Origin: Granulicella sp.
GTDB taxonomy: Bacteria > Acidobacteriota > Terriglobia > Terriglobales > Acidobacteriaceae
Assembly (NCBI GenBank): GCA_025408425.1
Contig: JANXYX010000014.1
Coordinates: forward strand, 1 to 64,000
Direction: 5' to 3'
DNA: 64,000 nt
Part shown: piece after piece, positions 29,668 through 52,577 of the stretch
How positions within the stretch are numbered: the first letter of the stretch is position 1
Layout: every line of letters starts with the position of its first letter
Notes under the pieces: model-generated
Databases searched by the model: none
What the model was told of the DNA's origin: nothing
The model's input: the letters and a program-made list of their open reading frames with translations, nothing else
Translations under genes and position numbers: made by a program

Positions 29668-30525
29668 TTACTGTGCGGTTAGAACGAATGGTGCTACGTA
29701 GAGTTGACTTCCTCCGCGGAATTGCAGCCACATCTTGTAAGTTCCAGGTTCCTTGATCGAGATATGAAGCATCATGTCTGGTGGCGAGATGGCGTTGTCC
29801 GGGAGGTCGGCTCCCATCTTCATGGGTCTTGAGGTGCTCATGGGTGCCATGGGTTCGCCCATGGCCATGGGGTGAACATGGACATATGAGAGGTCTTTTG
29901 CGTTGAGAAAGACTGCGTGAGCAGCTGCACCGAGATAGGGGTGCAGATCGGTAGCCGGCTTGTCACCCTTCAAGATATGCACGTCTATCATGTCCATACC
30001 GCCAGCACTGAGCTTCACTTGGCTGAGATCGACGGTGTAGGGTCCGATATTAACCTCACGACCTGTGGGCGATAGAGCGGGTGCCTTAGCGGGACGCGAC
30101 TTACTTACATTTACGTCAAAGCGGAAGACTTGATGGTCGAGATTATTGGGCTCGCCGTCGGCGTAGAGGTAATAAAGACCGGGACCCGAAAATTGTTGGT
30201 CTATGACGAAGTGGCCGGTGGCGTTGAGGACAGGATGTATGTGCATGAAGGAAGTGAAGTCAGCGTTGACAATCACAACGTGCAGCTTCTTCGTCATCTC
30301 GACTGCATAGTTGCGGATGGGGGTCGGGGACGGCGGAGCACTCATCCAGATATCGATGTGCTGCGTAAGCGGATCTTTGGCGCTGGAACTGATCTTTAGA
30401 TGGCCCTCTGTCTTAGGGCTGCCGCCTTGCAGCGAATACTTGCCGGGAAGTGATGATGGAACGTCCGCGGCATGAATGATGGAGGGAAGCAACAACAAGC
30501 TGAATAGAGCTAAAAGTTTCTTCAT
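29668..30525 (-). CDS. Secreted Met/His-rich protein, probable metal binder
   Basis: 285 residues with a signal peptide (cleavage near HAAD). Two similar halves each contain a His motif in a like context: VIVNADFTSFMHIHPVL in the first, FLNAKDLSYVHVHPMAMG in the second. The latter continues into a Met-rich run (EPMAPMSTSRPMKMG) ending DMMLHI. Such HxHxHP and Met-rich patches suggest periplasmic Cu(I)/Ag(I) binding, which I infer from composition. I do not recognise a named family. It follows the cytochrome c gene by 75 bp on the same strand. Confidence 0.65.
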   Translation of the reverse strand: MKKLLALFSLLLLPSIIHAADVPSSLPGKYSLQGGSPKTEGHLKISSSAKDPLTQHIDIWMSAPPSPTPIRNYAVEMTKKLHVVIVNADFTSFMHIHPVLNATGHFVIDQQFSGPGLYYLYADGEPNNLDHQVFRFDVNVSKSRPAKAPALSPTGREVNIGPYTVDLSQVKLSAGGMDMIDVHILKGDKPATDLHPYLGAAAHAVFLNAKDLSYVHVHPMAMGEPMAPMSTSRPMKMGADLPDNAISPPDMMLHISIKEPGTYKMWLQFRGGSQLYVAPFVLTAQ

Positions 30526-30600: not shown

Positions 30601-31080
30601 CTAGTGACCGTCATGTTCGTGGCTTGGCGTGACGAATGCGTCGGGCTTAGCGTTGCCACGGTGACATGTTCCGCAAGCTACCTGCGGTGGAGCTTCGGCA
30701 GGCAGAGACTTGGCGATGTACTTGGAATTGATGTCTTCTGTCATGGACATCATGTGGCGTGCAGTGGACTTCTCAGGTTTCGAGTCTGAGGCAAAGTCCA
30801 GCCCTTTGCCGGTCGGGGAAGGGGCATGACAGTAGGCGCACTGGACTCCAAGTTGCGCAGAGTATCCGTGCATGAGCTCGTGCAAAGAATTGGGATCGAT
30901 GTCCTTGGGCAGAACATGCAGATTGACAGGCTTCGGATTCTGGTGGTGTACGTGGGGTGGTGGTGCCGGTGGGGCGACAGGCGTTTGCGCAGAGGCAAGC
31001 GTAGCTATTGTTGAGACAGCACTGGCTGCAATCAGAAGAAAGCAGCTATAAAGTTTGCGGGGTCTGCTCAGAGAATTCAT
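30601..31080 (-). CDS. Secreted c-type cytochrome, reaction-centre cytochrome subunit type
   Basis: 159 residues with a signal peptide (ASAQ near residue 31). Two haem-binding CxxCH motifs are visible: CAYCH near residue 82 and CGTCH near residue 135. The surroundings, NLHVLPKDID, LHELMHGYSAQLGVQC and ARHMMSMTEDIN, match the photosynthetic-reaction-centre cytochrome family (PF02276 type) found widely in non-photosynthetic Acidobacteria. The Pro/His-rich linker PPAPPPHVHHQ may be an extra metal site. It probably transfers electrons in the periplasm. The partner oxidase or reductase is not in the window. Confidence 0.8.
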   Translation of the reverse strand: MNSLSRPRKLYSCFLLIAASAVSTIATLASAQTPVAPPAPPPHVHHQNPKPVNLHVLPKDIDPNSLHELMHGYSAQLGVQCAYCHAPSPTGKGLDFASDSKPEKSTARHMMSMTEDINSKYIAKSLPAEAPPQVACGTCHRGNAKPDAFVTPSHEHDGH

Positions 31081-32175: not shown

Positions 32176-35100
32176 ATGACCCACTACTCATTCCGACACA
32201 AGTTCTTGCTTCTCTTCGTACTCTTACTTCTACCTGGTATGCGCTCTGGTCTTTCACAGACCTCGACCGCAACGGTTGAAGGCTCAGTGGGCGATGCGAC
32301 GGGGGCGACTATACCAGGAGCTGTCATTACGGTGCTAAACACCGGCACTGGAATTTCGCGTCAGGCGAAGTCAGACGAGAGTGGTAGATACTTCGTCAAT
32401 TCACTAATTCCCGGAAGCTATACGATCAGTGGTGAAGCTGCGGGCTTTAGCAAGCAGGTAATGAAAGAAATTACGCTGAACGTGGGAGCTGACGTAAAGC
32501 TCGACGTTCAGATGACAGTAGGCGAGGCATCCACTACGGTGGAAGTCATCGCGCAGGGCGCCCTGGTCGATACGCAGTCATCGTCGAACGGGACAATCAT
32601 CGACAACAAGGCAGTTGTTGAACTGCCGTTGGCCAACCGGCAATTTTATTCGTTGGCGTTGCTTTCGCCGGCAGCCTACCAGCCTGCGCAGAATTCAACG
32701 CTTGGGTTCCGCGGTGGTATTAATATTGCGGGCGCGTCGGAGATCAGCAACCAATTCAGCGTGAATGGTACGTTTGACAACGATATGGGAGTGGCCCAGC
32801 CCTCGTTCCGTCCCTCTGTTGAAGTTATCCAAGAGTTCAAGCTTCTGACTGGCGTCTACTCGGCTGAGTATGGCCGCATGTCTGGGGGGCAGCTGGCAAT
32901 TATTACGAAGTCTGGCACGAATCGTTTTCATGGTTCAGCGTATGAGTTCATTAGAAATCAAGCTACAGATGCAAAGCCGTTTTTCAATGCAACTGGAGCG
33001 AAGACGCCGGCCTTCCGACAGAACACCTTCGGCGGCACTATTGGTGGGCCGATCTTCAAGGACAAGACTTTCTTCTTTTTTGGGTATGAAGGTCAGCGGA
33101 TCGGCCGGGCAGTTACGGCTCAGGCGACGGTTCCTACGACGGCTATGATCAATGGAGTCTTTACGACTTCTGGCAAGCTATATAATCCTGCGACTGGCAA
33201 GCAATTGACGCCAGTTGCCGGAACAACGACTACTTATGATCTCAAGACTGTCACTGATAACTCGGGCAATCTTCTGTGGAACAGTGTCGCTTCGCAGGCC
33301 GCTCAGACGATTGCAAAGCTCGGCTATCCGGCTGTCACTACGACGGGATCAAACAACTACAACTTCAGCGAGACACGTGTCGAGAATATGAATGAAGAGT
33401 CGCTCCGAATTGATCACAAAATTTCGGAGAAGGATTCACTTAATGGAAGCTGGAATTACTTCCGTGATCCGGCTTTTGAGCCCTCCAATTCGCTGTGCTC
33501 GTCCTATGTGTTGCCAAACTTTGGATGCTTTACTGATCAGCATTCCACGCTGGGCAATATCGTCTATGACCGAATTCTTACTTCTAGTCTGATCAACGAA
33601 GCGCGGGTGGGCTTCCAGCGACTGGTTCAGCCACGCACGCAGCAAGACAATACCACGCTTACCTATGCCGGTCTGCCAGGTGGTCCTTACTTCAACCAGC
33701 CAGGGTATGCCAACAACAGTGGCCTGCCAAACGTGGTTGTCAGCGGTTATTCGACGATTGGTGGTGCGACTAATCTGCCTCAGGATCGTTGGGATAACCA
33801 CTATCAATTCGTTGATATTGTTACGTTCAACCACAAAGCTCATACCTTCAAAGTAGGAGCGGATTATCTCGCTGCTAACTCTACTAACATCATCACGAGC
33901 TCGGGTCGCGGAGCCTTCAACATAAACGATGCAAGCCTGCCCGGAACGCTTGGCTCCAATGCGATTGGCAAGACCGGCGACTCGATGGCTGACTTCCTGT
34001 TTGGTTATTCCTATACCTCATCGCTGGGGTCATCGGCGCCCACGGTATATCTCAATTTCAGGAGCTATCATCTATTTGCTCTTGACGATTGGAAAGTAAA
34101 CTCACGCCTGACGCTGAATCTGGGATTACGCTGGGAGCTTGACGCACCCGTCTATTCTCCTCATAACACGGTCTCTAACTTTGACTTGACGACGCAGACT
34201 CATGTTGCGGCGGGACCGACCACCTTCAGTCATCTGTATAACTACGACAAGAACAATTTCGCCCCTCGAGTCGGCTTCGCCTGGCAGCCGCTGAAGGCAG
34301 ACTCCACGGTGATTAAAGGTGCAGTGGGAATGTTCTACAACACGCCACTTCTGTACAACCAGTTTCTGACGAATGGAACTCAGTATCCGTTCCGGTATGT
34401 GCCAACATTTACCGCTGCCACGGGTAATCTGATTACCTTGGCAAATCCGTTCCCAAGCGGCAAGCCACCGTGCACAAGCCCGACCCAGACAGGATGCCTT
34501 GCAGTTCTTCCTGGCCTCAGCATCGCTTCACGTTATTCGACTCCGTACATTACTGAGTGGAGTTTTGGAGTGCAGCAAGCTGTGACGAAGAAGATGGTTG
34601 CAGAGATCACCTACTTTGGCTCGAAGGGAACAAAACTGCCGCTTTCCGTCAACGTGAATCAGATAGCACCTGCCAATCTGGCTACATCGTTGGGTCAGTC
34701 GAGCCGGCCGTTTCCGAACTACGCGGCCATTACTCGTCAAGACACTCGCTCTAACTCAACATTCCAGTCCATGCAGACGAGCCTGAAGCAGAACTATTCC
34801 GACGGAGTTTCGTTTACCCTGGCATACACTTTCGCCAAATCGATTGATGGTGGAGGCGGCATCGGTAGCGGTAGCAACTCTTCGGGGGCTCCTCAGAACA
34901 TCTATAACCTGCGCGCTGAGCGTGGATTGTCGGACTTCAACGTGAAGCATCGGTTAGTGTTCAGCCCTGTTGCAGAGTTACCCTTCGGGAAGGGCAAGGC
35001 GTACCTGACTCATGGAGTCGGCTCAGCACTGGCGGGAGGATGGCAGGCTTCGGGCATCTTCTCCTTCCAGACGGGCAGGCCCTTTACTATTACTGACTCC

Positions 35101-35511
35101 GCATCGAATAACAGTGGGTCATTCCAAGGTGCAGACCATCCAAACGTTATCTCTAATCCAAATGCGTCTGTCGACTCTGTCACTGGCGCCAAGACACATA
35201 CTCCGACGGAGTGGTTCGATGTTCATGCTTTCCAGCTAGCACCGAAGGGAACATTTGGTAACTCAGGCCGCAACACTGTTATCGGGCCGGGTTATGTGGA
35301 TCTCGACCTTACGCTGGCACGCAAGTTCACGATCCACGAGAACATTGGAGGCCAGTTCCGGGTGGAGAGTTTCAATCTTCTCAACCATCCGAACTTCTTC
35401 AACCCGTTGACGCAGGGTGTCCAGTATGTGGCCACCGGAACTGCATTCGGCGCAATTACACAAGCGAACGACAACCGGGAATTTCAGTTCAGCCTGCGGC
35501 TCCTCTTCTAA
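32176..35511 (+). CDS. Oar-like TonB-dependent outer-membrane receptor
   Basis: 1,111 residues. A signal peptide (cleavage near GLSQ, about residue 28) is followed by a carboxypeptidase-regulatory-like Ig fold (ATVEGSVGDATGATIPGAVI, about 32-115), a plug domain (about 130-250) and a large beta-barrel ending NREFQFSLRLLF, with the terminal aromatic needed for BAM-mediated insertion. This CarboxypepD_reg/TonB architecture is expanded in Acidobacteria and imports large ligands such as glycans or peptides. The ATG is preceded by GGAGG. It heads a same-strand array of a small secreted peptide, peptidase-like lipoproteins and an ABC system, suggesting a peptide-like substrate. Confidence 0.9.
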   Translation: MTHYSFRHKFLLLFVLLLLPGMRSGLSQTSTATVEGSVGDATGATIPGAVITVLNTGTGISRQAKSDESGRYFVNSLIPGSYTISGEAAGFSKQVMKEITLNVGADVKLDVQMTVGEASTTVEVIAQGALVDTQSSSNGTIIDNKAVVELPLANRQFYSLALLSPAAYQPAQNSTLGFRGGINIAGASEISNQFSVNGTFDNDMGVAQPSFRPSVEVIQEFKLLTGVYSAEYGRMSGGQLAIITKSGTNRFHGSAYEFIRNQATDAKPFFNATGAKTPAFRQNTFGGTIGGPIFKDKTFFFFGYEGQRIGRAVTAQATVPTTAMINGVFTTSGKLYNPATGKQLTPVAGTTTTYDLKTVTDNSGNLLWNSVASQAAQTIAKLGYPAVTTTGSNNYNFSETRVENMNEESLRIDHKISEKDSLNGSWNYFRDPAFEPSNSLCSSYVLPNFGCFTDQHSTLGNIVYDRILTSSLINEARVGFQRLVQPRTQQDNTTLTYAGLPGGPYFNQPGYANNSGLPNVVVSGYSTIGGATNLPQDRWDNHYQFVDIVTFNHKAHTFKVGADYLAANSTNIITSSGRGAFNINDASLPGTLGSNAIGKTGDSMADFLFGYSYTSSLGSSAPTVYLNFRSYHLFALDDWKVNSRLTLNLGLRWELDAPVYSPHNTVSNFDLTTQTHVAAGPTTFSHLYNYDKNNFAPRVGFAWQPLKADSTVIKGAVGMFYNTPLLYNQFLTNGTQYPFRYVPTFTAATGNLITLANPFPSGKPPCTSPTQTGCLAVLPGLSIASRYSTPYITEWSFGVQQAVTKKMVAEITYFGSKGTKLPLSVNVNQIAPANLATSLGQSSRPFPNYAAITRQDTRSNSTFQSMQTSLKQNYSDGVSFTLAYTFAKSIDGGGGIGSGSNSSGAPQNIYNLRAERGLSDFNVKHRLVFSPVAELPFGKGKAYLTHGVGSALAGGWQASGIFSFQTGRPFTITDSASNNSGSFQGADHPNVISNPNASVDSVTGAKTHTPTEWFDVHAFQLAPKGTFGNSGRNTVIGPGYVDLDLTLARKFTIHENIGGQFRVESFNLLNHPNFFNPLTQGVQYVATGTAFGAITQANDNREFQFSLRLLF

Positions 35512-35548
35512 CTCGTATCAGCACTAACTCATTAGAAGAGGGTTAAGA

Positions 35549-35770
35549 ATGAACTGCAAATCACTTGGGCTAATAACACTGCTAGCTGTCCTGTCCGCGA
35601 CTGTAGGTCGCGGACAGGAGGCTACTCCTATTTGTCCTGAGATGAAGAAGTACTACTACGATGCTTCGAAGTACAACACTTACCTGGAGAAACTGGGTAT
35701 CAAGTATCCAACAGTGCGCGCGGAAGTGTCGTCGTTGAGCTTGAGTGATGCGGATGAAGACGAAAACTAA
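35549..35770 (+). CDS. Small secreted peptide of the TonB/M20 cluster
   Basis: 73 residues starting ATG at 35549 after AGAGGG. A signal peptide (MNCKSLGLITLLAVLSATVG, cleavage near GRGQ) leaves about 50 residues. These have one Cys (ICPEM), a Tyr/Lys-rich stretch KKYYYDASKYNTYLEKLGIK, and an acidic tail SLSDADEDEN. I do not recognise a family. It sits 37 bp after the receptor and 123 bp before the DUF885 gene. It could be a periplasmic accessory protein of the receptor, or a precursor peptide processed by the downstream peptidases and exported by the ABC system. Confidence 0.6.
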   Translation: MNCKSLGLITLLAVLSATVGRGQEATPICPEMKKYYYDASKYNTYLEKLGIKYPTVRAEVSSLSLSDADEDEN

Positions 35771-35893
35771 CGCGATGCGACATCTACTGAATTAGGCAAC
35801 AGGATGATTAAGTCAGTTGAACGTAGCAACCATTGTGAAGAAGTGACAGTAGCTAGACCTAGTCAGAAGTCATAATGGCGAAGTAAACGGGAC

Positions 35894-37258
35894 GTGATCG
35901 ATATGCCGGAGCAGATGTCAATCCGCGGAAGATGTGCAAGGTGGACCGCTCTGGCGGTGCTAGTAGCCTTGGTAGGCTGCAAGAGCGCCCCGCGTATGCC
36001 TGTAGCCGAGATTGACTCGGATGTTCGTGAATACGTGCGGATCGCGGCGGCCCTAGGACAACGAGATGCAGATTCCCTGGACTACTACTACGAGACGAAT
36101 AGTGGAGATGCGGATACGCAGAAAGAGCCGCCATCATTGTCGTCTCTCAAAGTCTCTGCGCTAAGTCTGATTAGGAAGGTGAAGCGCGAGCTCTCGTCAC
36201 AAAATCACGACACAGCCAGAGAAAACTACTTGTTAGCGCAGCTTCGGGCTATCGTGAGCCGTGCAGATGTGTTGATGGCTGTGCCGACAACCTTTGATGA
36301 AGAGATGCAAAGTAGTTTTGGAGTTAGACTCCCTGCCAGTTATGACCACCGCTCCATAGGTCGTGTACAGGCGGAGTTGCAGGCAGTATTGCCGGGCAAG
36401 GGACTGCTGGCAGACAGATACCAAGCGTTCGATGAAACATTTGTTATTTCACCTTCCCTGGTTCCTGCAGTTATAGAGAAAGCGGTAGAGGAGTGTAGGA
36501 GAGAGACGCTAGCTCACATTGCCCTTCCGGCGGGAGAGAAGGTAACGATCGAATATGTCCGCAATCGGCCGTGGAGCGCGTTTAGCTGGTACAAGGGGCA
36601 TTATCACAGCGTCATTCAAATCAATATGGACTTTGGTTTGACGGTGGATCGTGCGTTGAACCTTGCCTGCCACGAAGCGTACCCAGGACATCACACCTAC
36701 AACAGCATCCGTGAAGCGGAGTTGGTGAAAGGTAGGGGGCTGGAGGAGTACACGGTGCAACCTACTTATAGCCCTCAGTCCATGATGTCGGAGTCGATGG
36801 CGACGTTGGCTGTTGACGTGGCATTTCCTGCAGCAAAGCGGCTTGTTATTGAGCGCGATGTATTGTTCCCGCTTGCAGGGAAAGATGTTAGGTTGGCTGC
36901 GCGGTACTTACAAGTTGAGGCTCTTGTCGATCAACTCCATACGGTTGAGCCAGAGATTGCGCGAGAGTATCTCGATGGTCAGCTTGAGTTTGAGCGGGCT
37001 GGCGGACAGTTGCAGAGTGCGGCGTTGATGGCGCATCCCGAGGCCGCACTGAAATATATCAATGAGTATCGGAGCTACGTTACTACCTACACGTACGGTC
37101 GCGATCTTGTTGCAGACCTGATTCAGAAGCGTTCTGGAGAAGACAGTAGCGCACGGTGGAGGACTTATACGGGCCTCATGGTCGAGCCGTCAGAACAGTT
37201 TGTTACAAATCGAGATTCCGTCAGGGTTGCACCTTTATCGCGTGCAGGTGGCGGTTAG
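35894..37258 (+). CDS. DUF885 family lipoprotein, peptidase-like
   Basis: 454 residues from a GTG; in-frame ATGs at 35903 and 35915 are also possible starts. A lipoprotein signal with lipobox LVGC (near residue 36 of the long form) anchors it in the membrane. The DUF885 hallmark HEAYPGHH begins at residue 260 and looks like a zinc-binding site. Other typical parts are ISPSLVPAVIEKAVEECR, MMSESMATLAVDVAF, the late VEALVDQLHTVEPEIAREYL, and ALKYINEYRSYVTTYTYGRDL. DUF885 proteins are regarded as probable metallopeptidases, but the substrate here is unknown. It lies between the small peptide and the M20 genes. Confidence 0.75.
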   Translation: MIDMPEQMSIRGRCARWTALAVLVALVGCKSAPRMPVAEIDSDVREYVRIAAALGQRDADSLDYYYETNSGDADTQKEPPSLSSLKVSALSLIRKVKRELSSQNHDTARENYLLAQLRAIVSRADVLMAVPTTFDEEMQSSFGVRLPASYDHRSIGRVQAELQAVLPGKGLLADRYQAFDETFVISPSLVPAVIEKAVEECRRETLAHIALPAGEKVTIEYVRNRPWSAFSWYKGHYHSVIQINMDFGLTVDRALNLACHEAYPGHHTYNSIREAELVKGRGLEEYTVQPTYSPQSMMSESMATLAVDVAFPAAKRLVIERDVLFPLAGKDVRLAARYLQVEALVDQLHTVEPEIAREYLDGQLEFERAGGQLQSAALMAHPEAALKYINEYRSYVTTYTYGRDLVADLIQKRSGEDSSARWRTYTGLMVEPSEQFVTNRDSVRVAPLSRAGGG

Positions 37259-37324
37259 AGGTGTGGGTAGTTGAGGCGGTAATGCAGGACTAGGTCAACC
37301 AGTTGTCAATGCCAGGAGAGATTA

Positions 37325-38962
37325 ATGAGTGTAAAGATTGTGTCGTTAGTGATGATGGGGCTCCTCCCGTTCAGCGTCGGATGCAAGAGCAAGTCAGCCG
37401 ACCAGCCAGTCGCAAGTTCTAAACCGAAGCTGGGCATTCGGCCGCACGGTGACGAGACGGTGCAGCCCGACATGAGCAAGGTACCGGCTGATCTGGCTAA
37501 GGTGTTTGACTACATCGACACGCACATTGACGACCATGTTGAGAATCTGCAGAAGTGGATTCAGCAGCCAAGTATCTCCAACAGCGGCGAAGGTATTCCT
37601 GAGAGCGCTGAGATGGTGAAGGGCTTCTTCGATAAGTTGGGCTGCCAGCAGACACGTGTGTACGACGTTGGAATTACGGAGTATGGAACGCCTGGGAATC
37701 CTGTGGTCTACGCACACTGTGATGAAGGCGCACCAAAGACCCTGGTTATCTACTGGCAGTACGATACGATGCCGGTTACGCAGCCGGAGAACTGGATAGC
37801 TCCTCCGTTTGAAGGGCGGCTCGTCGACGGAAAGACCGCTGGCGTAAATCCCGACTTCAAGAAGGTATTGATTGGCCGTGGTGCGACAAATTCAAAGGGA
37901 CCAGAGATGGCTGAGTTGAACGCCATCATGTCGATGAAGCAGGTTATGGGTAAGCTTCCGGTAAACCTGATCTTTGTGGCAGAGGGTGATGAAGAGCGCA
38001 TGGACATTGGCTTGCGCAAGTTCATGAAGGAGCACTCTGATCTGTTCAAGGACGGCGATGCGATGCTCGGTGGTGGGGGCTCTGAAGGATGCGTTTACGT
38101 CGAATTGACGACAAGCGGCAAGAGTTGGGGACGTGGGCCAACGGTGTCGGATATTCACGGCGTCTTCAAGCGCACGACGGACAGCCCGGCATGGCGCCAC
38201 ATTCATATGCTTGCTTCTCTGACATCTGAAGATGGCAATACACCATTGATCAAAGGCTTCTTCGACAACATGGTTCCGCCCACGCCGGACCAGAGTGCAG
38301 CTATGAAGAAGCAGGCGGAGAAGGTTGATCTTACGTCGGTCGCGAAGAATGTTGGTGTGGCTCGTTTCATCTCAGACGATCCGTACAAGTTTCTTGAGAT
38401 GGGCCGCTTTGGCACATCGTTCAACCTAGACGGGATCTGGGGTGGAAATATGTACGCAGGCGGAGCTGGTGCAATTCTGCCGAACAAGATTACGTCAAAG
38501 CATAACTTTCGTTATGTGCCGAATATGAACGGCCTGGATATCGTAAAGAAGCTACGTGCACAGCTTGATCACAACGGCTATAAGGACGTTGAGATGAGGC
38601 TGATCGGCGACGTTCCCTGGGCGAAGAACCCGTCCAAGGATACGGACATCGCGCACGCGGGTGATGCGACTTACGCCATGATGGGAATTCAAGGGCGCCC
38701 TGAGTATCCCGCAGCTGGTGGCTACTGGCCAGCCTATGTTTTCACTGATCAAGAGGTCGGTGAGAAGGTAGGCAACGTGATGTTGCCGATGGGCGGAGCT
38801 CGCGCAGGATCTGGCGGGAGAGCCCACGCGGCAAACGAATACTACGTGATTGAAGGCGCAGGCAAGACATACGGCATGGCCGGTGCTGAGAAGACGATTG
38901 CGACCACGATCTACAACTACTCGAAGATTACGACCATAACCCCCAAGCCCAAGTCTCACTAG
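37325..38962 (+). CDS. M20-family lipoprotein, tandem copy 1
   Basis: 545 residues with a lipoprotein signal (lipobox VGCKSK, Cys near 20). The M20 metallopeptidase frame is clear: [45 protein letters not shown] and a C-terminal [11 protein letters not shown] with the last His ligand. However, the canonical first ligand motif (GHxD) reads YWQYD, with Gln at 145 in place of His. The bridging Asp of the GRGATDxKG pattern is Asn at 189. Two of the five usual metal ligands are therefore changed, while the EE pair and C-terminal His remain. Activity on peptides may be altered. The ATG follows GGAGAG. Confidence 0.8.
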   Translation: MSVKIVSLVMMGLLPFSVGCKSKSADQPVASSKPKLGIRPHGDETVQPDMSKVPADLAKVFDYIDTHIDDHVENLQKWIQQPSISNSGEGIPESAEMVKGFFDKLGCQQTRVYDVGITEYGTPGNPVVYAHCDEGAPKTLVIYWQYDTMPVTQPENWIAPPFEGRLVDGKTAGVNPDFKKVLIGRGATNSKGPEMAELNAIMSMKQVMGKLPVNLIFVAEGDEERMDIGLRKFMKEHSDLFKDGDAMLGGGGSEGCVYVELTTSGKSWGRGPTVSDIHGVFKRTTDSPAWRHIHMLASLTSEDGNTPLIKGFFDNMVPPTPDQSAAMKKQAEKVDLTSVAKNVGVARFISDDPYKFLEMGRFGTSFNLDGIWGGNMYAGGAGAILPNKITSKHNFRYVPNMNGLDIVKKLRAQLDHNGYKDVEMRLIGDVPWAKNPSKDTDIAHAGDATYAMMGIQGRPEYPAAGGYWPAYVFTDQEVGEKVGNVMLPMGGARAGSGGRAHAANEYYVIEGAGKTYGMAGAEKTIATTIYNYSKITTITPKPKSH

Positions 38963-39054
38963 GGCTGTGGGGGTTACGCCCCACTAAACGTTTTGCGAGC
39001 GATGGGATCTACAGCCGAATAACGGAATCTGAACACAGAATCGACAGGAGCCGC

Positions 39055-40701
39055 ATGATGCGTTCGAAAGTCACCACACTCGTTCTACTTGTCGCAATTG
39101 CTGGCGTCAGCGGCTGCAAGAGCAAGCCCACCGGAGAAACAGCTGCGCCTGCCACGCCGAAGCTAGGGATTCGTGCCCATGGGGATGAGACCCTCCAGCC
39201 GGACATGGCTCAGGTCCCGGACCCGATGAAGAAAGTCTTCAGCTATATCGACGACCACATCGATGATCACGTCGAGCTGCTGCAGAAGTGGATTCGGCAA
39301 CCGAGTATATCGAACAGCGGCGAAGGTATTCCTGAGAGTGCAGAGATGGTGAAGGGATTTTTCGACCAGCTTGGATGCCAACAGACGCGTGTCTACGACG
39401 TAGGCATTACGGAGTACGGAACGCCAGGTAATCCGGTGGTATTCGCGAAGTGTGATGAGGGAGCGCCAAAGACGGTGGTGATTTACTGGCAATACGACAC
39501 AATGCCGGTTACACAACCGGAGAACTGGGTAGCGCCTCCGTTTGAAGCGCGGCTGGTGGATGGTAAGACCGCTGGCATTGAACCTGAGTTCAAGAAGGCA
39601 CTCATCGGCCGCGGTGCCGTGAACTCCAAGGGGCCGGAGATGTCGGTCTATAACGCGTTGGCGTCACTCAAGGCGGTGAACGGTAAGCTCCCCGTGAATG
39701 TGATCTTTGTTGCTGAAGGCGATGAAGAGCGTATGGACATCGGTCTCCGGAAGTTTATGACGGACCACTCCGACCTGTTCAAGGGAGCGGATGCGATGTG
39801 GGGTCCTGGCGGCTCCGAGGGTTGCGTATACATCGAACTAACGACGAGCGGCAAGAGCTGGGGGCGTGGGCCGATTCAGTCCGACATCCATGGATCGAAC
39901 AAGCGGTCAGTGGATAGCCCCGCGTGGCGGCACATCAAAATGCTGTCCTCGCTGGTCTCCGATGACGGCAATACGCCGATGATCAAAGGCTTTGCCGACA
40001 ACGTGGAGCCGCTGAACCCGGCGGAGCTTGAAGATCTGAAGAAGCAGGCCGCGAAGCTGGACTTGACCAAAGCTGCGCAGGGGCTTGGCGTGAGGCGGTA
40101 CATCTCGGATGATCCGTTCACGATGTTGAAGATGGCGCGGTATGGTCTGTCATTCAACCTGGATGGGATCTGGGGCGGAAATATGTACGCCGGCGGCGCC
40201 GGGGCCATTCTTCCGAACAAGATCACATCGAAGCACAACATCCGTTATGTGCCGAATATGAACGGCCTGGACATTGTGAAGAAGATCCGGGCGCAACTCG
40301 ATCACAACGGTTACAAGGACGTTGAACTGAAGCTGATTGGGGATGTGCCTTGGTCGAAGATGAACTACAACACGGACATCCAACATGCAGCTGATGCGAT
40401 GTATGGCACGTTCGGAGTTCCTGTTCGGCCACGGGCTGAGGGTGCTTCGATCCTTGGTGGCTACTGGCCCTCGTATCTGTTCTCAAACCAAGTAGTTGGG
40501 CAGAAAGTGGGTATGGCTTCGATGCCGATTGGGAGTGGTTCGGTAGGCAGAGGCGGGAGGGCCCACGCGGCGAATGAGTACTACATTATCGAAGGTGCAG
40601 GAAAGACGTACGGGATGGCTGGAGCTGAGAAGTCCGTTGCGCTGGCAATTTGGAACTACGCCAACGGAGTCTCTGATGTGAAGCCGACAGCAACGAAGTA
40701 A
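39055..40701 (+). CDS. M20-family lipoprotein, tandem copy 2
   Basis: 548 residues, closely similar to the copies on either side over the whole length. Lipobox SGCKSK. The first metal-ligand motif reads YWQYD (Gln at 146) and the bridging position reads GRGAVNSKGP, so the same His and Asp are missing as in copy 1. DEERMDIG and [11 protein letters not shown] are kept. It differs from copy 1 mostly between residues 310 and 345 and near 435-470, where substrate-contacting loops might lie. Separated from copy 1 by 92 bp that include a gtgggg/ccccac hairpin (38967-38984 region). Confidence 0.8.
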   Translation: MMRSKVTTLVLLVAIAGVSGCKSKPTGETAAPATPKLGIRAHGDETLQPDMAQVPDPMKKVFSYIDDHIDDHVELLQKWIRQPSISNSGEGIPESAEMVKGFFDQLGCQQTRVYDVGITEYGTPGNPVVFAKCDEGAPKTVVIYWQYDTMPVTQPENWVAPPFEARLVDGKTAGIEPEFKKALIGRGAVNSKGPEMSVYNALASLKAVNGKLPVNVIFVAEGDEERMDIGLRKFMTDHSDLFKGADAMWGPGGSEGCVYIELTTSGKSWGRGPIQSDIHGSNKRSVDSPAWRHIKMLSSLVSDDGNTPMIKGFADNVEPLNPAELEDLKKQAAKLDLTKAAQGLGVRRYISDDPFTMLKMARYGLSFNLDGIWGGNMYAGGAGAILPNKITSKHNIRYVPNMNGLDIVKKIRAQLDHNGYKDVELKLIGDVPWSKMNYNTDIQHAADAMYGTFGVPVRPRAEGASILGGYWPSYLFSNQVVGQKVGMASMPIGSGSVGRGGRAHAANEYYIIEGAGKTYGMAGAEKSVALAIWNYANGVSDVKPTATK

Positions 40702-40774
40702 GGGGAAGTGAAGGTATTTGGCCGGAGTAAAGACCGAGTAGCTGTGAAGAAGCAGCTGTTCATCTGAAAGGGAA

Positions 40775-42460
40775 ATGATGCGTTCAAGAGTTGCGCTGCT
40801 CTGTGTCCTCGGTGTTCTGGCGGGTTGCCACAGCAAGACCACATCCAGCCCTGGCACTAAGCCAGGCCCAGCAAACACGGTCAAGCTGGGCATTCGTCCA
40901 CACGGCGACGAAACGATTGAGCCGGATATGAGCAAGACGCCTGCTGATCTACAGAAGGTCTATGCCTATATCGATGACCATATCGATGACCACGTTGAAA
41001 ATCTGCAGAAGTGGATTCGTCAGCCGAGTATTTCCAACAGCGGCGAGGGCATTCCTGAGAGTGCAGAGATGGTGAAGGGATTTTTCGACCAACTGGGCTG
41101 CCAGCAGACGCGTGTCTATGATGTTGGCATTACGGAGTATGGATCTCCAGGAAACCCCGTTGTCTATGCAAAGTGCGATGAGGGTGCGCCGAAGACGCTG
41201 GTAGTTTATTGGATGTATGACACGATGCCGGTAACGCAGCCGGAGAACTGGGTTGCTCCTCCGTTTGAGGCGCGGCTGGTCGATGGCGCTACCGCAGGAC
41301 TGAACCCGGCCTACAAGAAGGTGCTTATCGGGCGAGGAGCGACAAACTCCAAGGGTCCGCAGATGAGCCAACTGAACGCGCTGATGTCGATGAAAGCGGT
41401 GATGGGCAAGCTTCCGGTGAACCTCATCTTTGTTGCCGAAGGTGATGAAGAGCGCATGGACATCGGTTTGCGAAAGTTTGTGAAAGATCACTCCGATCTC
41501 TTCAAGGGCGCAGATGCGATGTTGATGTTTGGGGTGCAATCTGAGAGCGGCGCGGGTGGTCTGATGGGTGGCTCCGAGGGCTGCGTGTACGTTGAGCTAA
41601 CGACCAGCGGAAAGAGCTGGGGCCGAGGTCCTATCCAGTCTGACATTCATGGATCAAACAAGCGATCAGTGGACAGCCCTGCTTGGCGGCATATGAAGAT
41701 GCTGGCATCGTTGGTGTCGGACGATGGAAATACACCTAAGATCGGGGGTTTCTTTGACAATCTTGCACCTTTGACGCCTTCGGAGACGAAGAAGCTAAAG
41801 GATGTTTCCGGGAAACTTGACCTGACTGTTGCTGCGAAGAATCTGGGAGTAGGCCGATTTATTTCTGACGATCCTTTCACGATGTTGAAGATGCAACGTT
41901 ACGGCACGTCGTTCAATCTGGACGGCATCTGGGGAGGCAATATGTATGCCGGCGGAGCTGGAGCAATTCTTCCGAACAAGATCACCTCCAAACATAACTT
42001 CCGCTACATACCAAATATGAATGGTCTGGACATTGTGAAGAAGCTCCGCGCGCAGCTTGATCGCAATGGCTATAAAGACGTGGAGATGAAGTTGATTGGT
42101 GATGTGCCGTGGTCGAAGATGTCATATGACTCCGACATCGCAAGGGCCATCACAAAGACGTATACGGACTTCGGCATTCCATATGCAACTCCTGCCGACG
42201 GTGAGTCCATACTTGGCGGCTATTGGCCATCGTATCTGTTCTCGAATGGGGCAACCGGAGAGAAGATTGCTCCTGTAGCGATGCCGATCGCGGGCGGTGC
42301 AGCTGGCCATGGTGGCAGAGCGCACGCGGCAAATGAGTACTACATCATTGAAGGTGCGGGAAAAGTTTACGGAATGGCCGGAGCAGAGAAGTCCATTGCC
42401 TCCATCGTCTACAACTACGCCGCATCAGGCGCCAAACCCACAAAGAGCCCAACACAATGA
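40775..42460 (+). CDS. M20-family lipoprotein, tandem copy 3
   Basis: 561 residues, third paralogue. Lipobox AGCHSK. The first motif reads YWMYD, with Met at 147 instead of the His ligand, and the bridging position is Asn ([10 protein letters not shown]). It has a short insertion relative to the other copies after DAMLMFG ([12 protein letters not shown], about 252-263). The remaining ligands ([19 protein letters not shown]) are present. Its stop overlaps the ABC ATPase start by four bases (ATGA), which ties the M20 genes to the transporter. Confidence 0.8.
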
Positions 42461-43221
42461 CCTCTAAAATACCTGTGATTTCCATTCGCAACCTTACGAA
42501 GACTTATCAGATGGGTGAAGTGGCCGTCCATGCATTGCGGTCAGTCTCTCTTGATATCAACGCTGGTGAATTTGTAACCGTTGTTGGTCCATCTGGTTCT
42601 GGCAAATCAACATTGATGCATATTCTTGGCTGCCTGGACCAACCCAGCAGAGGGCAATATTTTCTAGACGGCAAGGATGTATCTCGACTGTCAGATGATG
42701 AGGTTTCGTCTGTACGCAACAGCAAGATCGGATTCGTATTCCAGGGCTTTAATCTGCTTACGCGAACGTCTGCGTTGGAAAATGTTGAACTGCCGCTGCT
42801 GTATGGCGCGAATCCTGTATCGGCGTCTGAGCGGCGCAATCGTGCAATGGCAGCGCTTGCGGCGGTGGGGTTGGAATCGCGGTATGAGCACCATACTAAC
42901 CAGCTCTCGGGTGGTCAGCAGCAGCGTGTCGCCATTGCTCGAGCGCTTTTGAACAATCCTTCGATACTGCTTGCGGATGAGCCAACGGGAAATCTGGATA
43001 GTCGCACCAGCGTTGAGGTAATGGACATCTTTCAATCATTGAAAGAGGAGCGTGGCATTACGATTGTTCTGATTACGCACGAGCCGGATGTGGCAGCTTA
43101 CGGATCGCGGATCATTGCATTCAAGGATGGCGTGATCACCGCAGACGAATTGAATGGGCAGCGACGTACCGCACGCGGTGAGCTTGCGGAGATCCCCGAA
43201 GTTGTCCAGGAGACTGCGTAA
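42457..43221 (+). CDS. MacB/LolD-type ABC transporter ATPase
   Basis: 254-residue ATP-binding subunit. Walker [10 protein letters not shown] (near residue 45), [15 protein letters not shown] signature, and Walker [10 protein letters not shown] followed by the LDSRTS D-loop are intact. The group powers MacB, LolCDE and FtsX-like mechanotransmission systems that move substrates from the periplasm outward or extract lipoproteins, rather than importing. Its start overlaps the third M20 stop, and its stop overlaps the next permease start (TAATG). Strong translational coupling indicates one functional unit. Confidence 0.92.
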
Positions 43222-44717
43222 TGGCACTTAAGACAAGCTGGATCATCTCACTGAAGGCTCTTCGCCGGAACAAGCTACAGACTGCGCTGACTATGGTTGG
43301 AATGACGATCGGGGTCGCGACAGTCCTTACGATGATCGCGTTGGGGTCTGGCGCGCAGGCGGCGATTCAGGATCAGGTGAAGGCGGCCGGTATGAACCTG
43401 ATTGTGGTGAAGGCAGGAAACTACCAACTCCAGCAGGATAGATTGCCGGATGATGCAATCGAGCCTGCAGCTTATTACCAGAGCCCCGGGTCTGCTCCGC
43501 GACTCGATTCAGGCGTGTATGTTCCAGGTGCAGCTAGTCTGCGACGGAGTTTCTTCCATCCTGAGGATGATCCGTTTGCCGTGCATGATCATCCTACTTC
43601 GCGGCAGAGACTGGGTGACTCGGAAGCTGGACTGGGATCGGCTGCGACGTTGACTATCTCGGATGCTGATGCGATCCGTCAGATAAGCGGCGTGCAGTAT
43701 GTATCGGAGGGAGTCCACGAGAACGCACACATCGGATACCAGGGGCAGCGCTGGTTTACCCGTATGCATGGAGACGACGTTTCGATGCCCAAGATCAAGC
43801 GGGCATGGGTCTTTACGCACGGAGGCTACTTTACGAAGCGTGAGGAGGCCAAAGCAGAGCAGGTGGTAGTGCTTGGCGGGATTGTTGCAGAGAAGCTATT
43901 CGGCAAAGATAACCCAGTAGGAAAGACGGTTACTTTGTGGAACCAGTCGTTCAAGGTTTCAGGCGTTGTGAGTAGCAGTAGCTGGATGGTAGCTCCTGCT
44001 GCCGGTGACGATGAATTTGATGCGATCTATATTCCAGTAACTACTGTGCAGAAGCTATTGAACTTATCGAAGTTGAATGACATTACGGTGACTACCGTTT
44101 CGACTGGCGATGTGACCCGAGTGACAAAGGCGATTACGGATCTGCTTCGATCACGTCATCGTATTGCGTTCAGGACACCAGATGATTTTTTGGTGACCAG
44201 CCAAGCGCGAAAAGCCCTTACGGGTGGCGGCATGCGGTCTGACGTTCAGCGTGCGGTTGTTGGTAATGTCTCCGGGTTGGAGAAGGTGACGCTGGAGCAG
44301 CTAGGCAAGACGCTCGATCGAGCGAGTGCAACGATGACAGCGCTACTCGCGAGCATTGCGACCGTGTCTCTGATTGTTGGTGGTATTGGCATTATGAATA
44401 TCATGCTGCTGTCAGTCACGGAGCGCACGCGCGAGATTGGAATTCGACGGGCAGTTGGTGCGCGAGCGCAGGATGTGCTGCTGCAGTTTCTGCTGGAGTC
44501 GATTACGTTGAGCGTAACGGGTGGCTTGCTGGGAGTTGCGATCGGCTACGGGGTCTCATTGTTTATCTCGAAGATATTGCAGTGGTCGACGCAAGTTTCA
44601 CCTCTCTCAGTGGCACTATCGTTTGGCGTGTCCGCCGCCGTTGGCATCTTCTTCGGCTACTATCCTGCGAAGCAAGCTTCACAGGTGCTTCCGATCGCAT
44701 CTCTCAAGTACGAATAA
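43221..44717 (+). CDS. MacB-like ABC permease 1
   Basis: 498 residues with the MacB/FtsX layout: one N-terminal membrane helix (MTIGVATVLTMIALGSGA), a large periplasmic core domain, and three C-terminal helices with [21 protein letters not shown], the coupling-helix region. The ATPase is separate, unlike MacB itself. Compared with permease 2 it carries an extra periplasmic insert of roughly 60 residues after the first strand, including SFFHPEDDPFAVHDHP, which is rich in His and Asp and could bind metal. The substrate is unknown. Confidence 0.88.
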   Translation: MALKTSWIISLKALRRNKLQTALTMVGMTIGVATVLTMIALGSGAQAAIQDQVKAAGMNLIVVKAGNYQLQQDRLPDDAIEPAAYYQSPGSAPRLDSGVYVPGAASLRRSFFHPEDDPFAVHDHPTSRQRLGDSEAGLGSAATLTISDADAIRQISGVQYVSEGVHENAHIGYQGQRWFTRMHGDDVSMPKIKRAWVFTHGGYFTKREEAKAEQVVVLGGIVAEKLFGKDNPVGKTVTLWNQSFKVSGVVSSSSWMVAPAAGDDEFDAIYIPVTTVQKLLNLSKLNDITVTTVSTGDVTRVTKAITDLLRSRHRIAFRTPDDFLVTSQARKALTGGGMRSDVQRAVVGNVSGLEKVTLEQLGKTLDRASATMTALLASIATVSLIVGGIGIMNIMLLSVTERTREIGIRRAVGARAQDVLLQFLLESITLSVTGGLLGVAIGYGVSLFISKILQWSTQVSPLSVALSFGVSAAVGIFFGYYPAKQASQVLPIASLKYE

Positions 44718-44744
44718 ACGCTGGCGACCAACAGGCAGGAAATT

Positions 44745-46106
44745 ATGTTGACAACGAGTCTTCGAATTGCGCAAAAGGCCCTTAAGCGAAATAAGCTACG
44801 TACCGGCTTGGCGATACTGGGCATGACAATCGGCGTAGCAGCTGTGCTGACCATGTTTGCATTGGGCACGGGCGCTCAGGAGTCTGTATCGGCGGATGTC
44901 AGGTCGGCGGGTACGACGCTAATTTTTGTGCGGTCCGGCAACTTTACGCGAGGCGGAGAAGAATCTCGCATCCCTACTGGCATGGGCAGTACGAATTCTC
45001 TTGTGCCGGCCGATGCGGATGCTATCGCAAAGATCGACGGCGTCAAGTATGTCTCTGCGAATGTGAAGGAGCGGACTTGGGTAGAGACCTCAAACCAGCG
45101 TTTCTATACGCAGATAGTGGGCGCAGATGTCGCATATCCTGATGAATACGGCTGGACCTTCCAGAAGGGAAAGTTCTTCAAAGAGAGTGACGTTGCTTCG
45201 GCTGCGCAGGTGGCGGTAATTGGCAGCTCACTGCGTGACCATCTCTTCGGCGACGAGAACCCTGTCGGCAAAGAGGTGCAGTTGCATAATCAACCTTATC
45301 GGGTGGTGGGTGTCTTTGAGTCGAAGGACGACGAGCAGGCGGATCTCGCTATTATTCCTTACACGACCGCGCAAAAGCAGTTGGGAACAAGCTCCATTCA
45401 GATGGTTACCGTATCAGCGGAGCAAGCTGGTGATACAACCCGTATCTCCGATGCGATCAAGACACTTTTACGTAGTCGGCATCATTTGGATAACCAGATT
45501 ACGCAGCCTACTGGAGGGGTAGCGCTGGGTGGACTTCAACTGCCCGGTGCTGGTAGCGGCGGTGCTACTCCGGACGACTTCACGGTGAAGACGCAGTCTT
45601 CGGAGGCCTTGACCAAAGGGTTGAATACTTCGGTGGCGGCATTCATTCTGGCGAATATGCCACAGATGGACCAGACGAACTCACAGGAGATGGCGGGAAC
45701 GCTGAGTCGCGCGGGTTCGACGATGACTGCGCTGCTCGCAGCGATTGCGACGATCTCGCTGATCGTAGGCGGTATTGGCATTATGAACATCATGCTGGTG
45801 AGTGTGACGGAGCGTACGCGTGAGATCGGTATTCGTCGTGCGATCGGCGCTCGACAGAGCGATGTACTGCAGCAGTTTCTGGTGGAAGCGGTCTCGCTCA
45901 GCGTCTTCGGAGGGATTTTTGGCATCATCATCGGGTTCGCTGCGGCGTTGACTATCACCAACGTTTTGCACTGGCCAGCGACGATATCTTTTACGGCGGT
46001 AGCGCTCGCATTTGGAATTGCGGCGGCGACTGGTGTGTTCTTCGGCTTTTACCCTGCTCGTCGAGCCTCACAACTTAGCCCAATCGATGCGTTGCGGTAC
46101 GAGTAA
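44745..46106 (+). CDS. MacB-like ABC permease 2
   Basis: 453 residues with the same MacB/FtsX layout as permease 1 ([40 protein letters not shown]-terminal [22 protein letters not shown]). It lacks the His/Asp-rich insert, but has a Gly-rich loop [18 protein letters not shown] before the last helices. The two unlike permeases probably form a heterodimer driven by the upstream ATPase. A terminator follows 20 bp after the stop, closing the cluster. Confidence 0.88.
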
Positions 46107-46126
46107 AAATGCCCGGCTAAAATACG

Positions 46127-46153
46127 AACGGCGGGAGTAGCTCCCGCCGTTTT
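46127..46153 (+). terminator. Intrinsic terminator closing the M20/ABC cluster
   Basis: aacggcgggag pairs with ctcccgccgtt across a 3-nt loop (11-bp stem), followed by tt. The preceding aaaat gives some bidirectional capacity, which would also serve the convergent ANTAR gene ending at 46175. Confidence 0.8.
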
Positions 46154-49882: not shown

Positions 49883-49929
49883 ACTCTTCGAACTCCTTGA
49901 CGACGTGGTCAGATTATTTCAGTATTTTT

Positions 49930-49950
49930 CTGGCCACATTTTGTGGCCAG
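49930..49950 (-). promoter_or_regulatory. Perfect inverted repeat between sdaA and gcvP
   Basis: ctggccaca and tgtggccag form a 9-bp perfect stem around three bases, 47 bp before the gcvP ATG. On the transcribed strand it is followed by a run of A, not U, so it is not a terminator. It could be an operator, an RNA-processing or stabilising hairpin, or a target for an RNA-binding regulator. Confidence 0.45.
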
Positions 49951-49987
49951 CATTCACGGACTGTATTGCGACTTCTATCTCATGCCA

Positions 49988-51864: not shown

Positions 51865-52323
51865 CTAACTCTGTCGTTTGCGGAACACGAGAGTATCCAG
51901 AGAGAAGAGCCCCGCGCCGAAGACAAGAACAATCAGCGAGGCGAACAAGAAAGTGAATGGATCAGCGACATAGAACTTGCCGGGATCAGAGAGTATGGAG
52001 AATAGAGCTTCGTGATCCGCAGTCCAGTATGCGACCAACATGTTGCCTGCAAGCAGAAGGCTGATGAGTCGGGAGCCAAGTCCGAGGATGAGTAGAATTC
52101 CGCCAATGAACTCGAGGCTGGCGACGAAGTGGGCGTTAGCGCCGGGAAGCGGGATGTGCAAACTTGTAAAGAACTCCGTTACCCTGGGCAGGCTGTGAAG
52201 CTTACCCCAGCCGCTCTGAGCAAATTGCCATCCCCAGTAAAGACGGATCGCAAGGAGGAGCGGTGACCTTCCGTAGGCGGCGACCTCTTCAAATTTGGCG
52301 TAACACTGCTGAATCAGATTCAT
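51865..52323 (-). CDS. DoxX family membrane protein
   Basis: 152 residues with four membrane helices. The DoxX pattern includes LLLAIRLYWGWQFAQSGWGKL, SLEFIGGILLILGLGSRL and the loop leading to the final helices. A longer open frame reaches 52425, but I chose ATG 52323: it has GAGAG 7 nt upstream, and the promoter -10 box sits at 52425-52429, so the longer start would precede transcription. DoxX-type proteins commonly accompany bufferin loci and are linked to metal or redox stress. Here it is divergent from the bufferin precursor. Confidence 0.82.
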   Translation of the reverse strand: MNLIQQCYAKFEEVAAYGRSPLLLAIRLYWGWQFAQSGWGKLHSLPRVTEFFTSLHIPLPGANAHFVASLEFIGGILLILGLGSRLISLLLAGNMLVAYWTADHEALFSILSDPGKFYVADPFTFLFASLIVLVFGAGLFSLDTLVFRKRQS

Positions 52324-52424
52324 AGTCGTTCTCTCGTAACACTCTCTCGCTAGGTTTTCCTGATCGCTGCCCCGAGGCTGCTTCGCAAAGTGGCTCGATG
52401 TGGAAGGGATCATGGAGTCAGGCA

Positions 52425-52455
52425 TTAGAGTCGCTTCTTTCCTTCGAGTTACAGG
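52425..52455 (-). promoter_or_regulatory. ECF-type promoter of the DoxX gene
   Basis: On the minus strand CCTGTAACT (52455-52447) is followed after exactly 17 bp by TCTAA (52429-52425). The same boxes and spacing occur in the opposite orientation before the bufferin precursor. The GTAAC core is typical of ECF sigma -35 elements. Transcription would begin about 95 bp before the DoxX ATG at 52323. Confidence 0.6.
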
Positions 52456-52577
52456 AGCGCGATTCTTTTGCTCTCGCAGGCTATCTGCTACGCTTTTCTC
52501 AGGATTTACGGGTGGGCTGCAATCCGTCGTGTGCGGTGATTCGTAAAGTCAGCGGGCATTGAAGATTTTTTTCAATT

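What the first reader, a model, noticed from the sequence alone, without database searches (positions are those of the whole stretch)
32176..46153. TonB receptor, secreted peptide, peptidase-like lipoproteins and MacB-type ABC system in one array
Nine genes run in one direction with short gaps and a terminator only at the end: an Oar-like TonB receptor, a 73-residue secreted peptide, a DUF885 lipoprotein, three tandem M20-like lipoproteins, an ABC ATPase and two MacB-like permeases. The third M20 gene, ATPase and first permease overlap in ATGA and TAATG arrangements. The order suggests uptake of a peptide-like compound, processing at the membrane, and expulsion by a MacB-type pump, or alternatively maturation and export of the small peptide. 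I know of no described system with this layout.
Basis: partly seen in the sequence, partly recalled or inferred. Interest (0 to 1): 0.78.

Follow-up and report, generated by a model that had tools for sequence, protein, structure and literature searches.

The report
Metal-linked pump with altered peptidase-like lipoproteins
A widely shared set of bacterial envelope genes, for which I found no description, couples a MacB-like pump to lipoproteins that look like peptidases but have a rewired metal site, next to copper-type proteins; the supposed small secreted peptide is only the remnant of a deleted enzyme gene.

Summary
The nine reading frames exist as described, but the 73-residue "secreted peptide" is a relic: signal peptide plus C-terminal tail of a 560-residue amidohydrolase that is intact in a relative. 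The rest is a real, conserved system. M20-like lipoproteins, ATPase, MacB-like permeases and an HExxPGHH lipoprotein recur together in Acidobacteria, Gamma- and Alphaproteobacteria; TonB receptor and amidohydrolase are variable partners. In 105 of 105 M20-like proteins examined, one zinc-2 ligand (His) is Met or Gln and the bridging Asp is Asn, while catalytic Asp, Glu-Glu and lid His are invariant: a conserved, altered metal site, not decay. A small His-rich exported protein (P16- or P11-type) accompanies 29 of 32 permease-bearing loci with full flanks; P11 relatives are fused to heavy-metal-binding or cupredoxin domains, and CopC-CopD lie beside the array in 9 genomes. Proteobacterial copies often lie by glycine/serine genes. 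Best reading: periplasmic handling of a metal-peptide complex, probably copper, with pump-driven removal. Substrate, metal and direction are inferred.

The parts
32176..35511 (+). Oar-like TonB-dependent receptor, variable partner
   Evidence: Pfam PF25183, PF13620, PF00593; P0001-type receptor in 9 of 32 permease-bearing full-flank loci
35549..35770 (+). 73-aa ORF: in-frame deletion relic of an M20-type amidohydrolase gene (signal peptide + C-terminal tail)
   Evidence: alignment score 202 vs shuffles 21 +/- 8 to the 560-aa G020 protein; that protein is TIGR01891 over cut-off; no other copy in own genome
35894..37258 (+). HExxPGHH lipoprotein (DUF885-like), presumed metallopeptidase
   Evidence: HExPGHH block invariant in 16 aligned relatives; lipobox; family in 27 of 32 loci; Pfam inconclusive
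37325..38962 (+). M20-like lipoprotein with rewired metal site, Gln type
   Evidence: Pfam; site residues
39055..40701 (+). M20-like lipoprotein with rewired metal site, Gln type
   Evidence: Pfam; site residues
40775..42460 (+). M20-like lipoprotein with rewired metal site, Met type
   Evidence: Pfam
42457..43221 (+). ABC ATPase of a type VII (MacB-like) machine
   Evidence: Pfam; NCBIfam best MacB and LolD, both below cut-off
43221..44717 (+). MacB-like permease A
   Evidence: MacB_PCD + FtsX; four hydrophobic segments
44745..46106 (+). MacB-like permease B
   Evidence: MacB_PCD + FtsX; four hydrophobic segments
46127..46151 (.). hairpin after the last gene, possible shared terminator
   Evidence: overall count of such sites not above chance
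29668..30525 (-). P11: exported His/Met-rich protein, divergent from the array, belongs to the system in this family
   Evidence: 52% identity or more in 8 of 250 class genomes, all 8 among the 10 with close M20; recurrent neighbour; invariant His and Met

Best explanation
A conserved envelope system that deals with a metal-loaded (most likely copper-loaded) peptide-like ligand in the periplasm. SHOWN by sequence: the core is M20-like lipoproteins with a uniformly rewired metal site, a separate ABC ATPase with two or three MacB-like permeases, an HExxPGHH lipoprotein, and a His-rich exported protein (P16- or P11-type); TonB receptors and an M20-type amidohydrolase are recurrent but variable partners. 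INFERRED: the receptor admits a metal-peptide complex; the HExxPGHH protein (and the amidohydrolase where kept) cleaves it; P11/P16 and, where present, CopC-CopD take the metal; the M20-like lipoproteins bind rather than hydrolyse the peptide in the usual di-zinc way and present it to the type VII ABC, which drives it away from the inner membrane or out of the periplasm; released Gly/Ser/Ala feed nearby catabolic genes. In this genome the amidohydrolase has been lost by deletion.
For: Co-conservation: of 41 loci with both 10-kb flanks (of 75), 32 have the permeases; of those 32, HExxPGHH in 27, ATPase in 27, P16 in 24, P11 in 6, P16 or P11 in 29; the 9 without permease have none of these at my thresholds. 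Rewired site in 105 of 105. M20 fold by profile and model. Lipoboxes. Metal: ten His and five Met invariant in 12 P11 proteins; P17 of G161 carries HMBD and clusters with P11; P11-like proteins carry HMBD or YHYH+cupredoxin domains; CopC and CopD beside the array in 9 genomes (one of each confirmed by Pfam) while CopD is over cut-off in 10 of 121 class genomes; close P11 in 8 of 250 genomes, all with close M20. Peptide products: Gly/Ser genes in 7 of 19 proteobacterial loci against 0 of 40 windows from 11 of those genomes. PvdRT-OpmQ shows that a MacB-type pump can clear a peptide metallophore from the periplasm (passage of PMC5985334).
Against: No biochemistry, expression or substrate data. 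P11 and P16 have no Pfam or NCBIfam family themselves; metal binding is read from residue pattern and fusions. The two CopC/CopD proteins tested fall below NCBIfam's copper equivalog cut-offs (87.3 vs 95 and 94 vs 195). P11's best structural match, copper FetP (Z 9.3), stands little above unrelated folds. CopC-CopD occur in one family-level lineage and CopD is absent from the window's genome. The amino-acid gene families were chosen after seeing them in the test loci; three of the seven hits are one lineage. No MacA-type adaptor or channel belongs to the array, so export to the outside is not shown. In many loci no TonB receptor was identified.
Confidence: 0.38

Rival explanations
1. Peptide or N-acyl amino acid scavenging without a special metal role: receptor imports peptides, lipoproteins and amidohydrolase break them to Gly/Ser/Ala, the ABC machine expels residues or loads the lipoproteins. 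P11/P16 merely supply or protect metals for the hydrolases.
For: Peptidase-type folds and an amidohydrolase; Gly/Ser genes at 7 of 19 proteobacterial loci vs 0 of 40 control windows; GcvP and SdaA beside the window array; alanine dehydrogenase with Lrp regulator in G012 and G155.
Against: The M20-like site lacks ligands needed for ordinary di-zinc catalysis in 105 of 105; P16 or P11 in 29 of 32 loci is more constant than any receptor; amino-acid genes are near few acidobacterial loci.
Confidence: 0.25
2. Metal (copper) homeostasis without a peptide: the M20-like lipoproteins are metal-binding proteins with a Met/Gln-containing site, and the ATPase-permease machine moves them or their metal in the envelope, as LolCDE moves lipoproteins.
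For: P11/P16/HMBD/CopC-CopD company; one ATPase plus two permeases as in LolCDE; CusA/CzcA-family pump and a bufferin locus in the window.
Against: Catalytic Asp, Glu-Glu and lid His stay invariant, which a mere metal binder would not need; HExxPGHH and amidohydrolase are unexplained; LolD and LolC/E cut-offs not reached.
Confidence: 0.2
3. Detoxification of antimicrobial peptides, BceAB-like: lipoproteins bind or cut the peptide and the type VII ABC removes it from the membrane.
For: Type VII ABC with separate ATPase; BceAB is of this architecture (passage of PMC5985334).
Against: No sensor kinase next to the array seen in the window ORFs; metal-type partners unexplained.
Confidence: 0.1
4. 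One reading: maturation and export of the 73-residue peptide.
For: Position and signal peptide only.
Against: It is a fragment of an amidohydrolase gene and no intact short relative was found in 61 related genomes.
Confidence: 0.02

Closest known systems
PvdRT-OpmQ and other MacB-type pumps
   Same: MacB-architecture permeases; PvdRT clears a peptide metallophore from the periplasm (passage of PMC5985334), the proposed job here
   Different: ATPase is a separate protein, two or three permeases, no MacA/TolC partner in the array; substrate unknown
LolCDE lipoprotein extractor
   Same: One ATPase plus two MacB-like permeases, here encoded with lipoproteins
   Different: Below LolD and LolC/E equivalog cut-offs; dedicated M20-like and HExxPGHH lipoproteins
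M20 dipeptidases: carnosinases CN1/CN2, Dug1, Sso-CP2
   Same: Fold, catalytic Asp, Glu-Glu, lid His, zinc-1 His
   Different: Zinc-2 His is Met/Gln, bridging Asp is Asn, zinc-2 Asp usually lost; lipoprotein N terminus
CopC-CopD / YcnJ copper uptake
   Same: CopC and CopD divergent from the array in 9 genomes; YcnJ-type proteins linked to Cu import (abstract and introduction part of PMC12362106)
   Different: Absent from the window's genome (CopD); one lineage; below NCBIfam copper cut-offs
Bufferin copper-metallophore loci
   Same: A full locus lies 5.8 kb downstream of the array here and about 7 kb away in G013
   Different: Not beside the array in the other lineages examined; functional link untested

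Membership tests
MacAB-TolC tripartite pump | ATPase fused to the N terminus of the permease | tested here: not met
   ATPase and permeases are separate ORFs; feature from PMC5985334
MacAB-TolC tripartite pump | four TM helices with a large periplasmic domain between TM1 and TM2 | tested here: met
   MacB_PCD + FtsX; four hydrophobic segments in each permease by a crude hydropathy scan
MacAB-TolC tripartite pump | MacA-type adaptor encoded alongside | tested here: not met
   none among the nine proteins; no hit to the window's HlyD-type protein shown in the 75 loci (E 1e-6, best-hit listing); elsewhere in the genomes not tested
LolCDE | equivalog scores for LolD and LolC/E | tested here: not met
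   LolD 237.9 bits vs 307.75; lolCE 31.6 and 43.6 vs 362.45
M20 di-zinc peptidases | M20 fold | tested here: met
   Peptidase_M20 over cut-off in all three; Foldseek TMt 0.78-0.80 to 4mmo_A, 3dlj_B, 4g1p
M20 di-zinc peptidases | five metal ligands (CN1 H132, D165, E200, D228, H478) | tested here: not met
   H132 position Met 83 / Gln 22, D165 position Asn 105 of 105, no D/E in the D228 loop in 85 of 106 rows (reference included); E200 position Glu 105 of 105, H478 position His 101 with 4 gaps (ligands from PMC4723063)
DUF885 (Pfam PF05960) | match above gathering score | tested here: inconclusive
   no hit for P0003; 3 of 16 relatives match, best E 0.004
Secreted peptide gene (73-aa ORF) | an independent small gene conserved with the array | tested here: not met
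   fragment of an amidohydrolase gene; matches elsewhere lie in full-length genes
CopC-CopD copper locus | CopC and CopD genes present in this genome's array | tested here: not met
   beside the array in 9 other genomes but no CopD match in G000
Bufferin locus (downstream neighbour) | BufB maturase, BufA-type precursor, DUF2063 partner | tested here: met
   BufB 354.6 bits vs 310; DUF2063 Pfam 52 vs 27.2; BufA2 45.7 is below its cut-off of 60

The most novel reading that the evidence does not exclude
A new kind of envelope system in which a peptidase fold has become a metal-peptide receptor: lipoproteins with a conserved (Met/Gln)-x-Asp, Asn, Glu-Glu, His site (Met and Gln being, from recall, the residues that alternate as axial copper ligand in cupredoxins) capture copper-peptide complexes, possibly bufferin-like Gly/Ser/Cys-rich metallophores, strip or recycle them with a dedicated type VII ABC machine, and pass copper to P11/P16/CopC-CopD. 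The set is shared between Acidobacteria and Proteobacteria.
Probability: 0.22. Interest if true: 0.82.

Novelty: new variant of a known kind. Interest (0 to 1): 0.62.

Why it matters
It defines a multi-phylum gene set whose central proteins would be annotated as peptidases, yet lack the ligands of ordinary di-zinc peptidases. It offers a concrete test case for how a type VII ABC machine works with dedicated lipoproteins, and possibly for how soil bacteria import, dismantle or recycle peptide-bound copper. It also shows that a tempting 'secreted peptide' inside an operon can be an in-frame deletion scar.

Tried and rejected
73-mer as toxin or effector: its one family hit was NF041939 at 17.9 bits against a cut-off of 60, over residues 1-21, the signal-peptide region; rejected.

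Solved relatives: none by sequence for the HExxPGHH family; for P11 only a chance hit at E 0.61. This says nothing about the folds. Foldseek for P11 gave fibronectin/Ig-like domains, and among them the Zcp metal-bound entries at low TM-scores.

Bufferin link: an MNIO gene is in 12 of 14 array genomes and 81 of 250 class genomes; 9 of the 10 close-M20 genomes in that sample have it (Fisher 2e-4), but 22 of the 25 same-genus genomes listed have it too, so kinship can explain it. Within 10 kb of the array it was found in 3 of 14 (G000, G013, G020; G020's is a different, larger MNIO protein). Treated as context. PMC12452194, searched by terms, has no occurrence of 'TonB-dependent', 'MacB', 'peptidase' or 'Acidobacteri'.

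Amino-acid control: 13 of 75 test loci against 1 of 27 acidobacterial control loci, not matched for phylum; I then used 40 windows from 11 genomes of the proteobacterial set. These windows were contig starts or arbitrary places, not random draws; three are about 6 kb. The 19 test loci were picked by record titles; several are short contigs.

Literature: searches listed no paper that by title or abstract start describes this gene set; most subscription papers are not held. Seen: passages of PMC5985334, PMC4723063 and PMC12452194; abstract and part of the introduction of PMC12362106. All others only as listings.

Rows dropped: one search kept the best 80 of 121 relatives (75 loci), so counts on them are of a truncated list; 34 of 75 loci lacked full flanks and were left out of the count. 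One search used proteins of 300 aa or more with 50% identity or more to a window M20 protein, identical copies removed. One search was read out of frame and not used.
Full report
WHAT IS THERE. Pfam names a CarboxypepD_reg/OMP_b-brl_4 TonB receptor, three Peptidase_M20 proteins, an ABC ATPase and two MacB_PCD+FtsX permeases; the 73-mer and the 'DUF885' protein hit nothing at E 0.01. The M20 and HExxPGHH proteins begin with lipobox-type signal sequences. The genome (G000, 4.23 Mb in 53 contigs) is acidobacterial: its nearest named relatives include Granulicella and Edaphobacter.

THE SMALL PEPTIDE IS A RELIC. A search of 61 related genomes with the 73-mer found matches at E 0.1 or better in 12, and outside the window they lie inside open frames of 466-637 aa. 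In G020, an array of the same order (with two M20 genes) has a full gene at that place, a 560-aa protein that is TIGR01891 amidohydrolase over cut-off. The 73-mer aligns with its residues 1-24 and 504-548: score 202 against 21 +/- 8 for 300 shuffles, and both halves align as DNA. G000 has no other copy. In Granulicella sp. dw_53 (L139) only the signal-peptide stretch remains (score 53 against at most 29 in 300 shuffles), and the gaps of L138 and L147 show nothing above chance. So the gene is being lost in this lineage; here an in-frame deletion of about 480 codons left a readable scar.

THE SYSTEM IS REAL AND WIDE. In 250 genomes of the class, relatives of the third M20 protein at 60% identity or more occur in 10; the HExxPGHH protein occurs in 12, including all 10 (Fisher 3e-16, shared ancestry not corrected). 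Of 299 genomes of the family, 11 have close M20 relatives. A scan of the named species genomes returned 75 loci (best 80 of 121 relatives kept) in Acidobacteria, in Gammaproteobacteria such as Solimonas and Parahaliea, and in Alphaproteobacteria such as Sphingomonas and Croceicoccus, at 58-90% identity. Of 41 loci with both 10-kb flanks, 32 carry permeases. Among these 32 are 27 with the HExxPGHH protein, 27 with the ATPase, 24 with the small His-rich exported protein P16 and 6 with P11; 29 have P16 or P11; the 9 loci without permease have none of these at the thresholds used. P0001-type receptors are in 9 and the amidohydrolase in 7 of the 32. Other TonB receptors, confirmed by Pfam in L173, L180, L189 and L190, lie beside proteobacterial copies.

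THE M20 PROTEINS ARE REWIRED. Profile and model place them with Sso-CP2, carnosinases and Dug1. In carnosinase 1, H478 and E200 hold zinc 1, H132 and D228 hold zinc 2, D165 bridges, and mutation of H132, D165 or E200 abolishes activity (PMC4723063, passage). In 105 distinct proteins from the 75 loci, the H132 position is Met (83) or Gln (22), the D165 position is Asn in all, and the D228 loop has no acidic residue in 85 of 106 rows (reference included). The E200 position, the preceding Glu, the catalytic Asp and the lid His are invariant, and the H478 position is His in the 101 without a gap. One search shows the same in the class genomes, and Met and Asn also in 23 members of a more distant family (32-38% identity), whose loci lack close relatives of the array's ABC genes (some have ABC proteins at 22-32% identity). 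Uniform replacement with the other active-site residues kept speaks for a changed function, not decay. In 8 of the 10 genomes tallied both Met and Gln forms occur.

METAL COMPANY. The divergent P11 gene (29668-30525) has relatives at 52% identity or more in 8 of 250 genomes, all 8 among the 10 with close M20. Twelve aligned P11 proteins share ten invariant His and five invariant Met. CopC and CopD stand with P11 in 9 genomes; one of each was tested, over the Pfam cut-off but below the NCBIfam copper equivalog cut-offs. CopD is over cut-off in 10 of 121 class genomes, two of them array genomes. In G161 the array holds P17, which carries an HMBD domain and clusters with P11; a P17-like protein in L169 also matches the P16 profile. 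P11-like proteins elsewhere carry HMBD (two tested) or YHYH plus cupredoxin (one tested). The P11 model is all beta; its best structural match is copper FetP, Z 9.3 over 109 residues, only a little above unrelated folds. Window neighbours include an outer-membrane efflux protein, an adaptor and a CusA/CzcA-family pump (21547-26962) and a bufferin locus (51865-55835), whose counterpart in G013 also lies near the array.

AMINO-ACID COMPANY. GcvP and SdaA follow the window array. Gly/Ser genes (GcvT, GcvH, GcvP, GlyA, SdaA) lie in 7 of 19 proteobacterial loci, in several layouts, but in 0 of 40 windows (758 kb) from 11 of those genomes. The families were chosen after inspection and L192, L195 and L197 are one lineage, so the p-value of 1.5e-4 is optimistic. 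Alanine dehydrogenase with an Lrp-type regulator flanks the array in G012 and G155.

MECHANISM. The ATPase and permeases form a type VII machine with separate ATPase, as in LolCDE, but fail the LolD and LolC/E cut-offs; no MacA was seen with them. Putting the strands together, I favour periplasmic handling of a metal-peptide complex, with the M20-like lipoproteins as binding or single-metal modules and the machine removing the ligand. Composition, conservation and the altered site are shown; substrate, direction and metal are inferred. Peptide scavenging without metal, and metal homeostasis without peptide, remain live rivals.

NOVELTY. The parts belong to known folds; the searches listed no description of the combination. 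I call it a new variant of a known kind: a type VII ABC system with dedicated, rewired lipoproteins.

Noticed in passing
window 51865-55835: Bufferin-type copper-metallophore RiPP locus: DoxX/HvfX-like protein, BufA2-like 94-aa precursor (below cut-off), BufB maturase over cut-off, DUF2063 partner, ECF sigma factor, zinc-finger protein. A likely true secreted RiPP lies about 6 kb from the array, unlike the 73-mer.
   Followed up: partly
window 21547-26962: Outer membrane efflux protein, RND adaptor and CusA/CzcA-family heavy-metal RND pump (TIGR00914 over cut-off).
   Followed up: partly
window 47003-51400; L181, L189, L192, L195, L197, L207, L211: Glycine cleavage, serine dehydratase or serine hydroxymethyltransferase genes near the array in the window lineage and in several proteobacterial loci; none in 40 control windows.
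   Followed up: partly
L139 6592-6778: Only the signal-peptide stretch of the amidohydrolase gene remains between receptor and lipoprotein genes: another stage of the same gene loss.
   Followed up: yes
L033-L052, L064-L066 (rows): A more distant M20 family in Acidobacteria has the same Met and Asn replacements without the array; the rewired site may predate the array.
   Followed up: no
L132 3559-5469 (G020): A different MNIO-type protein (492 aa, PF05114) with a Cys-pair-containing 142-aa neighbour lies about 2 kb downstream of the G020 array; possibly another RiPP pair.
   Followed up: no
L212-L219: P11-like domains in larger acidobacterial proteins; the one tested (L212) also has YHYH and cupredoxin-like domains.
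   Followed up: partly
L178, L181, L189, L191: A gene related to a Met-zincin (DUF4953/DUF5117; Pfam run on L189 only) recurs next to the array in proteobacterial loci.
   Followed up: no
window 30601-31080: c-type cytochrome (NF033196 over cut-off) between P11 and the array; a counterpart lies beside P11 in G013.
   Followed up: no
window 19089-19988: ORF with an Rhs-like motif (recalled), no Pfam hit; probably a fragment.
   Followed up: no
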